IMG/VR virus record: IMGVR_UViG_3300050343_000164
Span: 1-53,887 of that record
DNA: 53,887 bases
From: a virus
Reading direction: 5' to 3' (one strand)
Part shown: positions 8,933 through 19,857 of the stretch, piece by piece
Numbering within the stretch: position 1 is the stretch's first letter
Layout: every line of letters starts with the position of its first letter
Made by a program: the position numbers and the translations under genes
The notes under the pieces: model-generated
The model's input: only the letters and a program-made list of their open reading frames with translations
Told to the model about the DNA's origin: nothing
Database searches by the model: none

Positions 8933-9109
8933 ATGTCGCGACTGGTATTGACAAGGAAAGTCAACGATAAGGTCACCCTCTCCAAAGACGGTGAGCATGT
9001 CGCTACTGTAACAGTGGGTCGGATAGACCGAAACCAAGTCAGAATCGTATTCGAAGCAGACTCTAATGTAGAAATAACCCGAGAGCCTCGGGAAAAAAAG
9101 TCTGCCTAA
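8933..9109 (+). CDS. csrA: CsrA/RsmA-type RNA-binding translational regulator
   Basis: 58 residues, one base after the polymerase stop. LVLTRKV at 4-10 matches the first strand of CsrA (E. coli L4 and R6 correspond to L6 and R8). RNQVRI (33-38) matches GNQVRI. VEITRE keeps the RNA-binding Arg (R50, E. coli R44), although the usual His before it is Thr. There is about 4 residues of extra length in the loop after strand 1. CsrA dimers bind ANGGA sites, often in hairpin loops over an SD, and block or alter translation. No clear SD; translation is probably coupled to the polymerase. Possible phage targets are the leaders at 12418 and 45161. Confidence 0.9.
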   Translation: MSRLVLTRKVNDKVTLSKDGEHVATVTVGRIDRNQVRIVFEADSNVEITREPREKKSA

Positions 9110-9113
9110 CCAT

Positions 9114-9128
9114 ATTAGCGGGACTAAT
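9114..9128 (+). promoter_or_regulatory. ATTAG-N5-CTAAT element, copy 3
   Basis: Perfect copy, ATTAGCGGGACTAAT, 4 nt after the csrA stop and only 7 nt before the primase ATG. No separate SD is visible, so as RNA the loop would present the only purine-rich stretch (CGGGA) ahead of the start. Confidence 0.75.
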
Positions 9129-11654: not shown

Positions 11655-12422
11655 ATGTCGGACTTCAATATGACCGTTGCCAAGACACAATCAACTCGCC
11701 CTGACGCTGACAAAATCATGTCAGACAAGCCACCATTAGGCCCTGTCCGTGCATGGTCATACTCAGCACTTAAAGTATTTGAAGAGTGCCCTCACCGCAC
11801 ATTTCTATCTCGTGTCAAAAAAATAAAAGAGCCCTCTAGCCCTGCTGCAGACCGAGGCACGCAAATACACCAAGAAGCCGAAGACTATGTAAACGGTACG
11901 TTAGGTGAATTCCCAAGTAACTTAGAAAAATTTAAAGACGACTTCGAAACTCTACGAGCATTGTTTGCTGAAGCAAAAGTAGAACTCGAAGGCGACTGGG
12001 CTTTCACAGAAGAATGGGAAATATGCGGTTGGATGGAGAGTAGAACATGGGCTCGCATCAAACTCGATGCTTTAGTAAGAGAAGACGAGCAAAGCGCACG
12101 AGTCATCGACTACAAAACTGGCAAGAAATGGGGCAATGAAATTGGTCACAGCCAGCAAGCTTTGCTTTATGCCATTGCTACTTTTGTCAGATACCCATCG
12201 ATTGAGTTTGTGCAAACCGAACTGTGGTACTTAGATAAAGGTGAAACAACCGTTAAAACCTTCACAAGAGCAGAAGCAACACAGTTTCTTCCTGGCTTCC
12301 ACGCTCGCGCTACTCGCATGACAAGTGAATTTAATTTTGAGCCGTCGCCCTCAAAATCAGCATGCCGATGGTGCTCCTATAGAAAAGGCGATAACCCCGA
12401 GTGTGAATGGGGTATTGGCTAA
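11655..12422 (+). CDS. PD-(D/E)XK nuclease, Cas4/RecB-like
   Basis: 255 residues. Order of motifs: SYSALKVFEECP (C45), RGTQIH (H72), KLDAL (D138), IDYKTGK (D152, K154), and at the C-terminus CRWC and a further Cys (C237, C240, C250). This is the layout of Cas4/AddB-type nucleases, where four Cys hold a 4Fe-4S cluster. It likely processes phage DNA ends during replication or recombination. It follows the primase and shares the operon with the SNF2-type helicase downstream. There is no CRISPR array in the window. Confidence 0.88.
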   Translation: MSDFNMTVAKTQSTRPDADKIMSDKPPLGPVRAWSYSALKVFEECPHRTFLSRVKKIKEPSSPAADRGTQIHQEAEDYVNGTLGEFPSNLEKFKDDFETLRALFAEAKVELEGDWAFTEEWEICGWMESRTWARIKLDALVREDEQSARVIDYKTGKKWGNEIGHSQQALLYAIATFVRYPSIEFVQTELWYLDKGETTVKTFTRAEATQFLPGFHARATRMTSEFNFEPSPSKSACRWCSYRKGDNPECEWGIG

Positions 12423-12436
12423 CAACGGAGGTTAGC
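12418..12436 (+). promoter_or_regulatory. SD-sequestering hairpin with ACGGA loop, candidate CsrA site
   Basis: GCTAAC-AACGGAG-GTTAGC: a perfect 6-bp stem with a 7-nt loop. The SD GGAGG (12427-12431) lies in the loop and first stem base, 6 nt before the ATG. The loop contains ACGGA, which fits the ANGGA core bound by CsrA. The 5' arm overlaps the end of the nuclease gene. Confidence 0.7.
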
Positions 12437-12437
12437 A

Positions 12438-13235
12438 ATGAAGCAACAATTATTAGCTGCGATTGCAGCAAGCTTACTAATATCTGGATGTGCGTCTTCG
12501 ACAACTCAATATTACGAAGCAGTACAAGCTGCTGCACAGGCAAACGCTGCTGCTTCACAAGCAAAATTTGATGCCTTAGCACAAATAGCAAGCGCTGGAG
12601 ACGGACAAGCAGCATCTGCTGCAGTAATGGCTCTTGCACTGACGCAAACGCCTGTTGTAACTCCCCAACCACAACAATCAGAAGCTTTGAAGTGGGCTTC
12701 GGTGCTCGCAACTCCCATAAGCTCGCTTGGTATGATGTGGTTACAAACTGATTCTGCTAACACGATGGCCGAATACAACGCAGAAGTTGACTTAGCACGC
12801 ATCTCTGCAGACTCAGTCAATCAACAAGCGCTATACGGCTCCTTTGTTTCGTCCAACCAGATCACTGGTGACGTTGCCACGGCTGGTATGACTGCGATGG
12901 GCAACGTGGACTACACCCCCTTCGTTAATGGCATGGTCTCGCTGGGTGAGGCTGGGCTTAATTCCAACGTCTCCATCGCCACGGTCGGTTTAAACACGGC
13001 TGGCGAGCTTGGTGTTACCGGCATGAACAACCTAACCAACTTAGGTGCCGCTGGGATGACGGCTATACAAACCGTGGGAACAGAGGGGTTTGACGCACTA
13101 AATGCCTCCACTGCCGCGTGGCTTAACTACTCCGCAACAAGGGATACGACCTTTGCGGGGATGATGGCTACTGAACAGAGCGGATGCGTTGTTACAGCAA
13201 ATGCTGAAGGTCAAATAGTAGTGACCTGCCCTTAG
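12438..13235 (+). CDS. Phage lipoprotein, Ala/Gly/Thr-rich
   Basis: 265 residues. A type II signal peptide ends in the lipobox LISGC (C18), so the mature protein should be lipid-anchored in the host envelope. The rest is Ala/Gln-rich, then Gly/Thr/Asn-rich low complexity with repeated GMT/GLN/GVT-type turns, and a C-terminal segment with two Cys (SGCVVTANAEG). An early lipoprotein could serve in superinfection exclusion or envelope interaction; that is inference. Its SD is enclosed in a hairpin (12418-12436), and a terminator follows at 13285, so it forms a separately controllable step. Confidence 0.75.
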   Translation: MKQQLLAAIAASLLISGCASSTTQYYEAVQAAAQANAAASQAKFDALAQIASAGDGQAASAAVMALALTQTPVVTPQPQQSEALKWASVLATPISSLGMMWLQTDSANTMAEYNAEVDLARISADSVNQQALYGSFVSSNQITGDVATAGMTAMGNVDYTPFVNGMVSLGEAGLNSNVSIATVGLNTAGELGVTGMNNLTNLGAAGMTAIQTVGTEGFDALNASTAAWLNYSATRDTTFAGMMATEQSGCVVTANAEGQIVVTCP

Positions 13236-13284: not shown

Positions 13285-13311
13285 GACCTCGCTTATGCGG
13301 GGTCTTTTTTT
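13285..13311 (+). terminator. Rho-independent terminator with upstream alternative hairpin
   Basis: GACCTCGC-TTAT-GCGGGGTC (8 bp, one T-G) followed by seven T. Just upstream, GACCC-CCT-GGGTC (13263-13275) forms another hairpin, and GACCCC (13263-13268) could instead pair with GGGGTC of the terminator (13299-13304). The two foldings exclude each other. Confidence 0.85.
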
Positions 13312-17110: not shown

Positions 17111-17527
17111 GTGAACGAGCACGGCTTCATAAAAGCCGTGCATCGGCACCTTCCAGCTGAACTGTATCGATGGAAAATCCATGATACATATACCGGCGGC
17201 GTTCCCGACGCTTACTATTGTGGACCCGCCGGTTCCCTATGGGTTGAGTACAAATACATCAAGCTTCCAAAGCGAGAAAGTACGATTGTCACTTATTGCA
17301 CGACAGAACAGCAACGTGTGTGGTTGACAAAGATGCAGAAGTACGGACAATTAACCACGCTAATAATTGGTTGGGATAAACACGCGACTCTTATTGATCC
17401 CCAGCTAATTAATAGTCCTCTCAATAGTGGCGAACTACAAAGACGAGGTATTACTTTTAAGGAAATCGCCCAGCAAATAGAAACAACATGTATGTCAGGA
17501 GGATATATACATGGGAACACTACCTAA
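17111..17527 (+). CDS. VRR-NUC-like PD-(D/E)XK endonuclease
   Basis: 138 residues from GTG. The core GGVPDAYYCG, then SLWVEYKYIK, gives the D...ExK signature of VRR-NUC/Holliday-junction-resolvase-like nucleases, followed by TTEQQRVWLTKM. It probably resolves or trims phage DNA intermediates. It overlaps the XRE regulator by 17 nt, so the regulator is translationally coupled to the replication genes. Confidence 0.8.
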   Translation: MNEHGFIKAVHRHLPAELYRWKIHDTYTGGVPDAYYCGPAGSLWVEYKYIKLPKRESTIVTYCTTEQQRVWLTKMQKYGQLTTLIIGWDKHATLIDPQLINSPLNSGELQRRGITFKEIAQQIETTCMSGGYIHGNTT

Positions 17528-18098
17528 AGCCGTGATCAATCTCCGTAGAATTTGGGAGGCTAAAAAAGATCACTTAGAAGTAACGCAAGCCCAAGCTGCT
17601 CAAAAGCTAGGATGGACGCAAGGCGCATTTAGCCAATACCTTAATAACATAACTGATCTACATCCTGACGCCGTAGCAAAGCTAGCTAATTTCCTTGAGG
17701 TTGACCCACACGAAATCGACCCCGCGTTTAACCCAATAGAAGCTACTCGCTTTAAAGTCCCCATCCTCTACATCCATCCAAAAACACCAGCCAACTACTC
17801 AGAAGTTACGTATAGAAGACGAATAGTCGCAACCGTAGCTGAAGAAAACTACAAGGCAATCTGCGCTATTAGATTAGAAAAAGACCTGCGCCCCATAGGC
17901 TTCAAAGGCCAAATGACGCTGTGCTCAAATATGTTCAAACTAAAAACTCCCAGGCTAACGCCCGGTCGCGTACCAGAATTTTATATCATCAAACGTAAAA
18001 ATAGCGACCCGCTTGAAGTAGTAAAAATCAGTGAATGCCCACCTGACAAAGAGCTAGAAGCAAAGCTGCTGCCACTGCTTACTTACGTCATTAATTAA
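17511..18098 (+). CDS. XRE-family transcriptional regulator, possible phage repressor
   Basis: 195 residues. The N-terminal HTH (about 20-66: TQAQAAQKLGWTQGAFSQYL) is of the XRE/Cro-CI type. The C-terminal half is beta-rich and could be a LexA-like dimerisation domain, but I see no convincing Ser/Lys autocleavage dyad. A strong SD (AGGAGG) precedes the ATG. It is transcribed with the replication genes and not divergently as in lambda. Three inverted repeats follow its stop. It is the best candidate for the protein that binds the dispersed ATTAG-N5-CTAAT sites, but this is inference. Confidence 0.8.
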   Translation: MGTLPKAVINLRRIWEAKKDHLEVTQAQAAQKLGWTQGAFSQYLNNITDLHPDAVAKLANFLEVDPHEIDPAFNPIEATRFKVPILYIHPKTPANYSEVTYRRRIVATVAEENYKAICAIRLEKDLRPIGFKGQMTLCSNMFKLKTPRLTPGRVPEFYIIKRKNSDPLEVVKISECPPDKELEAKLLPLLTYVIN

Positions 18099-18633: not shown

Positions 18634-18827
18634 TTGAAAAGTATGGTCCTTTTATGGACCTACCGGAGATAGCTAGCTTGTTAAAAGTAGAAGCTAGATC
18701 TATCTATAGCCAAATAAATCGAGGAAAACTCGATTTGCCACATATCAAACACGGCAAAAAATACCTGTTTCCCACCCCAGAAGTCGCAGCCTTTTTAGAG
18801 TCCAAAATAACTAATTACCCTCTATAG
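18618..18827 (+). CDS. Excisionase-like HTH protein
   Basis: 69 residues. FMDLPEIASLLKVEARSIYS, then INRGKLDLPHIKHGKKYLF and PEVAAFLE is the MerR/excisionase-type winged helix (HTH_17-like). The gene runs convergently into the integrase and overlaps its 3' end by 17 nt. It probably directs excision with the integrase, though small HTH proteins of this type can also be plain regulators. Confidence 0.75.
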   Translation: MEALLIEKYGPFMDLPEIASLLKVEARSIYSQINRGKLDLPHIKHGKKYLFPTPEVAAFLESKITNYPL

Positions 18828-19857
18828 CAGCAAGCACCTGCCCCGGCTTCAGTTGAGTGTAGCGTTTAAGTGTGTCCCAAGATTTATGGCCGGACACCAG
18901 CGCTACTTGTTCTATCGTTAACTTTTGCTCAAACAAACGACTACACGCTTCGTGCCGAAGATCGTGAAAGTGCAGGTCTGGACATCCTGCTATTTGCGCT
19001 ACATCTGCAAACTTGTCTGACACAGCACCAGCAGTAGCAACCTGGCAGAAGACTCTTCCGCGCTGCTTGCTGCATAGCCATAGACCATGAAGCAGGGTCC
19101 ATGTCTCATGGAGCATGGGGATTGTTTCATCGTTGCCTTCTTTCTCTTGCGGATCTTTGCGATCACGAATGGTAAGCGTGCGGTTCTCGAAGTCTACGTC
19201 TTCCCATGTCTGCCGATGAATCTCAGCAAGTCGCATAGCATTGTGAACGGCAATAACAATGAAGTGCGAGATCCAGTGACCTTTGGCTGCTTCCATTAGC
19301 TTTTCGTACTCACCAGAGGCGAGCCTACGTGAACGCTTGCGACTAGGGCCTACCAACTTCATCTTTGCAAGCGCGTAGCGCGCGTCTCTCACGGGGTTTG
19401 TTTCAAAAGGCATGCCCCATGAGATGCGAGCAAACTCGACGAGCTCCGCCATATATTGAAGCTGAGTATTAAGCGTGCTTCGTGCAACACCCTTCTTGTC
19501 GTCTGTTCCCAACCTACGTTGACGACCATACTCCAACACTTTCTCTACTGTAATTTCATGCAGCTTGTAGTGACCGATTTCGCGTTGCGTCAACCGATAA
19601 GTAGAAATTTTGGACTCGCAGAAATTGTTAAGGGGGTGGACTTCTTCGATGTAGCGATCGATCAGCTGGCCGAACGTCGTCTTCTTTTCAGATCTCTGTT
19701 TGCGTGCCAGCAAAGCGCCGGACTCAATGTCCGCTTCTGTCCGCTTCGCCCACTGACGAGCTTCGGTTTTTGTGTCAAAAGTTCTGCTGACCGCTGGATA
19801 CCCAGCTTTGCGAATTTCGGCGTAAAACCGTCCGTTCCGATTGCGGATTGATGCCAT
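18811..19857 (-). CDS. int: Tyrosine recombinase (phage integrase)
   Basis: 348 residues. An N-terminal arm-binding domain (about 1-55: NRNGRFYAEIRKAGYP) precedes a SAM-like core-binding domain (about 60-150) and the catalytic domain with R209, K234 or nearby, H298, R301, H324 and Y333 (HDLRH, GHKSW, KRYTQL). All catalytic residues are present, so it should be active. The attP region with arm-type repeats lies directly upstream of its start, and the excisionase-like gene converges on its 3' end. Confidence 0.95.
   Translation of the reverse strand: MASIRNRNGRFYAEIRKAGYPAVSRTFDTKTEARQWAKRTEADIESGALLARKQRSEKKTTFGQLIDRYIEEVHPLNNFCESKISTYRLTQREIGHYKLHEITVEKVLEYGRQRRLGTDDKKGVARSTLNTQLQYMAELVEFARISWGMPFETNPVRDARYALAKMKLVGPSRKRSRRLASGEYEKLMEAAKGHWISHFIVIAVHNAMRLAEIHRQTWEDVDFENRTLTIRDRKDPQEKEGNDETIPMLHETWTLLHGLWLCSKQRGRVFCQVATAGAVSDKFADVAQIAGCPDLHFHDLRHEACSRLFEQKLTIEQVALVSGHKSWDTLKRYTQLKPGQVLAAIEGN

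What the first reader, a model, noticed from the sequence alone, without database searches (positions are those of the whole stretch)
12418..12436. Perfect hairpin with ACGGA loop enclosing the SD of the lipoprotein gene
GCTAAC-AACGGAG-GTTAGC holds SD and GGA in a 7-nt loop, 1-2 nt before the ATG. This is the textbook form of a high-affinity CsrA site, in a phage that carries csrA 3.3 kb upstream on the same strand. Inference: CsrA represses the lipoprotein, perhaps delaying an envelope-exclusion function.
Basis: partly seen in the sequence, partly recalled or inferred. Interest (0 to 1): 0.7.

Follow-up and report, generated by a model that had tools for sequence, protein, structure and literature searches.

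The report
Stop-codon hairpin at phage lipoprotein start
A small RNA hairpin really does sit over the ribosome-binding site of a phage lipoprotein gene and is kept in four relatives, but half of it is just the end of the previous gene, so it looks like an ordinary gene-junction structure, and control by the phage's CsrA protein remains possible but unproven.

Summary
The hairpin is real: GCTAAC-AACGGAG-GTTAGC at 12418-12436, one base before the ATG at 12438. The phage does carry csrA (8933-9109), and its RNA-binding residues are conserved in relatives. The lipoprotein follows the nuclease gene in only four other viral lineages found, and all four keep a GGA-loop hairpin there. Three facts weaken the CsrA reading. 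(1) The 5' arm is the nuclease's last codon plus its TAA stop; the same GCTAAC occurs in 18 of 63 relatives that have no lipoprotein there. (2) The loop GGAG is the Shine-Dalgarno, so its conservation needs no CsrA; there is no two-sided compensatory change, and one relative breaks a stem pair. (3) csrA is found in nearly all relatives whether or not they have the lipoprotein; GGA-loop hairpins are not enriched at gene starts in the window; and the site misses the strict CsrA consensus (7-nt loop, no ACA). Best reading: an ordinary intercistronic hairpin spanning stop codon and ribosome-binding site, giving at most modest translational coupling to the nuclease. CsrA repression stays open at about 20%. 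Noticed on the way, and more striking: a dispersed palindrome, ATTAG-N5-CTAAT, at gene junctions across this integrase-bearing phage, which looks like a repressor operator set.

The parts
12418..12436 (+). Intercistronic hairpin GCTAAC-AACGGAG-GTTAGC
   Evidence: Sequence; -6.7 kcal/mol; 96.7% of pair cells kept in 5 lineages
12420..12422 (+). TAA stop codon of the nuclease, inside the 5' arm
   Evidence: ORF table
12427..12431 (+). Shine-Dalgarno GGAGG; its GGA is the candidate CsrA motif
   Evidence: Sequence, 6 nt before ATG; invariant in 5 lineages
12438..13235 (+). Putative lipoprotein, 265 aa, lipobox LISGC; family seen only in viral contigs, no Pfam or PHROG match
11655..12422 (+). PD-(D/E)XK (RecB/Cas4-like) nuclease, upstream gene
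   Evidence: PF12705 E=8e-22, phrog_69
8933..9109 (+). csrA, 58 aa
   Evidence: PF02599 34.9 bits over the cut-off; RNA-binding residues conserved
12486..12488 (+). Second GGA (AUAUCUGGAUGU), 56 nt downstream; encodes the Gly of the lipobox Gly-Cys
   Evidence: Sequence; GGA kept in 4 of 5 lineages, GGT in G004
13285..13311 (+). Intrinsic terminator after the lipoprotein; the matching terminator directly follows the nuclease in close relatives lacking the lipoprotein
   Evidence: Sequence and empty-site comparison

Best explanation
It is an ordinary intercistronic hairpin. The end of the nuclease gene (TTAGCTAAC in relatives, itself a near-palindrome) pairs with the Shine-Dalgarno spacer of the inserted lipoprotein gene (GGAGGTTAGC). 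Its likely effect is modest: in the free mRNA it hides the end of the Shine-Dalgarno and the spacer, and a ribosome finishing the nuclease at the TAA in the 5' arm opens it, so lipoprotein translation is partly coupled to nuclease translation. Shown: sequence, gene order, overlap with the stop codon, predicted stability, retention in four relatives. Inferred: the coupling. CsrA is not needed for any of this.
For: The stop codon lies in the 5' arm and the genes are 15 nt apart on the same strand. The hairpin is kept in five lineages whose two clades are near saturation at four-fold sites (37-51% identity between clades), with 29 of 30 pair cells standard. The single breaking change, in G004, strengthens an alternative register of the same arms. 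Opening energy is 5.9-8.7 kcal/mol in all five; lipoprotein homologues elsewhere range from 0.8 to 7.6, mostly lower. The 5' arm GCTAAC is present in 18 of 63 lipoprotein-less nuclease ends, including the empty site G005, so it predates or is independent of any lipoprotein control. A 6-bp GGA-loop hairpin at a gene start is expected 0.18 times per genome.
Against: Stability (-3.7 to -6.7 kcal/mol) is near the level at which structure at a ribosome-binding site is thought to start to matter (own knowledge, MS2 coat-gene work), so coupling may be slight or absent. Opening energy ranks only 18th of 76 in the window. There is no two-sided compensatory change. Spacers of other genes are also well conserved: 7 of 25 leaders, this one included, match as well or better between the window and G003.
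Confidence: 0.45

Rival explanations
1. CsrA site: the phage (or host) CsrA dimer binds GGA in the loop, perhaps bridging to the second GGA 56 nt downstream, and blocks ribosome binding to the lipoprotein mRNA until CsrA is titrated or diluted.
For: csrA is present with L4/R6/R44-type residues conserved. The loop contains ANGGA in all five lineages, even where the N changes (ACGGA, AGGGA). It overlaps the Shine-Dalgarno, as in known targets, and the spacing to a second GGA is within the 10-63 nt bridging range (PMC7652899). Lipoprotein leaders outside this gene order mostly lack such a hairpin, and no csrA was found on the contigs tested.
Against: GGA is the Shine-Dalgarno and the 5' arm is coding sequence plus stop. 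The loop has 7 nt not 6, ACA is absent, and the stem has 6 bp where SELEX winners mostly had 4 or fewer. csrA occurs in nearly all relatives, which mostly lack the lipoprotein after the nuclease. GGA-loop hairpins are not enriched at the window's gene starts. The second GGA is forced by the lipobox and lost in G004. The contrast with other lipoprotein leaders is confounded by the different gene junction, and many of those contigs are fragments.
Confidence: 0.22
2. No function: a by-product of junction history. TTAGCTAA is a palindrome, so the short direct repeat TTAGC (GTGTTAGCTAAC then GGAGGTTAGC) left or kept at the insertion point automatically pairs with GCTAA.
For: Relatives show the TTAGC direct repeat at the nuclease end and in the spacer. 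The empty site G005 already has TTAGCTAACAAC. Chance rate at gene starts is 0.18 per genome. Spacer conservation is within the range of other leaders.
Against: Retention across two clades near saturation at four-fold sites, and maintenance of one or other pairing register in all five.
Confidence: 0.3

Closest known systems
CsrA/RsmA sites over the Shine-Dalgarno (E. coli glgC; RsmE-hcnA ANGGAN hairpin; P. aeruginosa pslA)
   Same: GGA in a hairpin loop overlapping the Shine-Dalgarno, with a csrA gene in the same genome
   Different: 7-nt loop, ACA missing, 6-bp stem, second GGA fixed by the lipobox codons, no binding evidence, and the GGA is itself the Shine-Dalgarno
Intercistronic translational-coupling structures (e.g. 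phage MS2 coat to replicase; E. coli IF3-L35-L20 operon)
   Same: Upstream stop codon and downstream ribosome site share one structure that a translating ribosome would open
   Different: Short local hairpin of moderate stability; coupling not shown here
Phage-borne csrA/rsmA genes (catalogued in PMC7366521 and PMC8450108)
   Same: Small CsrA homologue in a phage genome with the conserved arginine R44
   Different: This lineage lies between DNA polymerase and primase and found no tblastn match (E<=0.01) among 50,697 isolate-phage records

Membership tests
CsrA binding site | GGA unpaired in a hairpin loop | tested here: met
   Loop AACGGAG; kept in 5 of 5 lineages
CsrA binding site | ANGGAN hexaloop closed by the stem (high-affinity form) | tested here: not met
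   ACGGAG is present but with an extra A: 7-nt loop. Extra loop bases can lower RsmE affinity (PMC7652899)
CsrA binding site | SELEX consensus RUACARGGAUGU, with ACA and GGA 100% conserved | tested here: not met
   AACAACGGAGGU matches 7 of 12 and ACA is absent at its place (sequence; consensus)
[quoted passage not shown]
   GGA is part of the Shine-Dalgarno GGAGG
CsrA binding site | Second site 10-63 nt away for dimer bridging | tested here: inconclusive
   GGA at 12486-12488, 56 nt on, but it encodes lipobox Gly and is GGT in G004
CsrA binding site | Stem conserved by compensatory change | tested here: inconclusive
   0 two-sided changes, 1 pair with G-C to G-U, 1 broken cell; 5 sequences only
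CsrA binding site | Bound by CsrA with an effect on translation | not testable with these tools
   Needs gel shift and reporter
CsrA protein family (8933-9109) | PF02599 match with R44 and the beta-1 LxLTR strand | tested here: met
   34.9 bits against cut-off 27; R44 50/50, R6 48/50
Translational-coupling hairpin | Upstream stop codon inside or next to the structure that covers the downstream ribosome site | tested here: met
   TAA 12420-12422 in the 5' arm; Shine-Dalgarno and spacer in loop and 3' arm
Translational-coupling hairpin | Structure strong enough to limit independent initiation | tested here: inconclusive
   -3.7 to -6.7 kcal/mol; opening energy ranks 18 of 76
Translational-coupling hairpin | Downstream translation depends on upstream translation | not testable with these tools
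   Needs reporter

The most novel reading that the evidence does not exclude
A temperate phage uses its own CsrA to control translation of one of its own genes at a stop/Shine-Dalgarno hairpin: a phage-internal Csr regulon that couples lipoprotein output both to nuclease translation and to CsrA level.
Probability: 0.18. Interest if true: 0.6.

Novelty: new member of a known kind. Interest (0 to 1): 0.22.

Why it matters
Phage csrA genes have been catalogued, and host targets such as CRISPR-Cas have been proposed (PMC8450108). In the passages read here I saw no phage-gene target of a phage CsrA. If this hairpin were one, it would give the gene family a testable role. As it stands it is a warning that GGA in a Shine-Dalgarno hairpin next to a phage csrA is weak evidence, because the Shine-Dalgarno itself supplies the GGA and the neighbouring gene can supply an arm.

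Tried and rejected
DNA-pattern scans of viral contigs with one arm fixed returned the same four lipoprotein relatives plus unrelated Shine-Dalgarno matches. The csrA-primase junction also has a GGA-loop hairpin (9114-9128), first taken as a second CsrA site; rejected because it belongs to a dispersed palindrome family whose loop usually lacks GGA in relatives. No Rfam match (no CsrB/RsmY-type decoy) in the window. Nuclease and lipoprotein searches of genome contigs found no prophage relative, so the host is unknown and no further covariation could be had. Two family searches failed on a wrong csrA coordinate and were repeated (then 15, 16).

Full report
The observation. The sequence at 12418-12436 is GCTAAC AACGGAG GTTAGC, followed by one base and the ATG at 12438 of a 265-aa ORF with a lipobox. 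Alone it folds at -6.7 kcal/mol with 97% of the ensemble in that structure; in 121 nt of context it is part of the best structure, though the region as a whole is no more stable than shuffles (z -0.8).

Is it more than chance? A 6-bp perfect stem with GGA in a 4-9 nt loop in the 30 nt before a start is expected 0.18 times among 76 called genes (observed 1; 16% of shuffle sets reach it). At 4, 5 or 5-with-GU stems the window is not significantly enriched either. The opening energy of this ribosome site (6.7 kcal/mol) is 18th of 76. The hairpin is therefore not statistically remarkable on its own, and there is no sign of a genome-wide set of GGA hairpins.

csrA. The upstream gene is at 8933-9109 (58 aa, PF02599 34.9 bits over the cut-off of 27). 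In 50 distinct homologues from this phage group (window included), R44 (the arginine essential for RNA binding according to PMC7652899 and PMC7366521) is invariant, as are I at position 42 and A36; L4 is 47/50 and R6 48/50. It is very probably a working RNA-binding protein. It sits between DNA polymerase and primase in nearly every relative whose contig covers the place, and found no tblastn match at E<=0.01 among 50,697 isolate-phage records.

Relatives of the junction. Of the 80 nuclease loci kept from viral contigs, only a handful have the lipoprotein after it. With the window this makes five distinct lineages: window, G001 (L018), G002 (L002), G003 (L053), G004 (L017). Further scans found no more. 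All five keep the hairpin and GGA: the relatives read AGCTAACAACGGAGGTTAGCC (G002), the same ending TTAGTC (G001), AGCTAACAAGGGAGGTTAGCC (G003) and AGCTAACAACGGAGGCTAGTT (G004). On the alignment 29 of 30 pair cells are standard. One pair shows G-C to G-U, one cell is broken (A-C in G004), and none changes on both sides. The G004 change strengthens a shifted register (UUAGCU with GGCUAG) that all five can also form. The two clades are near saturation at four-fold sites of the nuclease (37-51% identical), so the retention means something. Other Shine-Dalgarno spacers of these phages are also conserved, however: 7 of 25 leaders, including this one, match as well or better between the window and G003.

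Why the 5' arm proves little. Among 63 distinct nuclease ends without the lipoprotein, 18 end in exactly GCTAAC. The empty-site relative G005 reads GTGTTAGCTAACAACAAAG and then, after about 25 nt, the same kind of terminator that follows the lipoprotein in the window. The lipoprotein gene is thus a discrete insertion or deletion between the nuclease stop and the terminator, and the 5' arm belongs to the nuclease. Since TTAGCTAA is a palindrome, a TTAGC in the new gene's spacer pairs with it automatically.

Why the loop proves little. GGAG is the Shine-Dalgarno. The best-defined CsrA sites have an ANGGAN hexaloop, the ACA motif, stems mostly of four pairs or fewer, and often a second site 10-63 nt away (PMC7652899). 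Here the loop has seven bases, ACA is missing, the stem has six pairs, and the second GGA, 56 nt on, encodes the lipobox Gly and is lost in G004.

Does csrA track the hairpin? Homologues of the lipoprotein are common elsewhere in viruses; in L003 the gene lies directly before the terminase large subunit and portal genes. Those leaders mostly lack a GGA-loop hairpin of six pairs (two exceptions, L377 and L431), and no csrA was found on the 24 such contigs tested. That fits CsrA control, but it is confounded: the other leaders have a different upstream gene, and many contigs are fragments. In the other direction csrA is kept by dozens of relatives that lack the lipoprotein after the nuclease, so this site cannot be the general reason csrA is kept.

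Mechanism. The most economical account is an intercistronic hairpin that at most modestly couples lipoprotein translation to nuclease translation: the ribosome that stops at the TAA in the 5' arm opens it. Shown: overlap of stop, hairpin and ribosome site; retention. Inferred: coupling. Translational coupling through intercistronic structure is well known in phages, for example MS2 (PMC9894550). CsrA could act on top of this, and CsrA control combined with coupling is known (iraD, PMC7652899), but nothing here requires it.

Side finding. The junction downstream of csrA carries ATTAG-N5-CTAAT. This palindrome occurs 8 times perfectly and 14 times with up to one mismatch in the window, against 1.3 expected and in none of 100 shuffles. 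Ten of the 14 lie between called genes although 94% of the window is coding; it is at the same junctions in relatives, with arms fixed and the five middle bases free. At the csrA-primase junction 29 of 51 relatives have it with at most one mismatch. The arm centres are 10 bp apart, one helix turn. The window also has an HTH_3/HTH_31 protein (17511-18098), with two sites just after it, and a tyrosine integrase (18811-19857). I read this as the operator, or stoperator-like, set of a temperate phage repressor. That is an inference, not tested.

Noticed in passing
window 1408, 2988, 6586, 9114, 11630, 14465, 17350, 18105, 18150, 24993, 31912, 37335, 45384, 52122: Dispersed 15-bp palindrome ATTAG-N5-CTAAT, mostly at gene junctions (14 with up to 1 mismatch against 1.3 expected, 0 of 100 shuffles). 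Arms are fixed and middle bases free at the same junctions in relatives. Looks like a repressor operator or stoperator set.
   Followed up: partly
window 17511-18098 and 18811-19857: HTH_3/HTH_31 repressor-like gene and tyrosine integrase: probably a temperate phage; two of the palindromes lie just after the HTH gene.
   Followed up: partly
window 12438-13235; L001-L044, L375-L446: The lipoprotein belongs to a virus family with a conserved N-terminal part (about residues 18-173) and a variable repeat-rich C-terminal part. 214 viral hits but none in genomes of 84,980 bacterial and archaeal species by the pattern scan; directly upstream of terminase large subunit and portal genes in L003. Function unknown.
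   Followed up: partly
window 12438-13235 against G001 and G002: The lipoprotein is only 64-69% identical between phages whose neighbouring nuclease and primase are about 98% identical: an allele-swapped or fast-evolving gene in a conserved operon.
   Followed up: no
window 8933-9109 and relatives: csrA is kept between DNA polymerase and primase in nearly all relatives of this phage group, with the RNA-binding residues conserved, yet its targets are unknown.
   Followed up: partly
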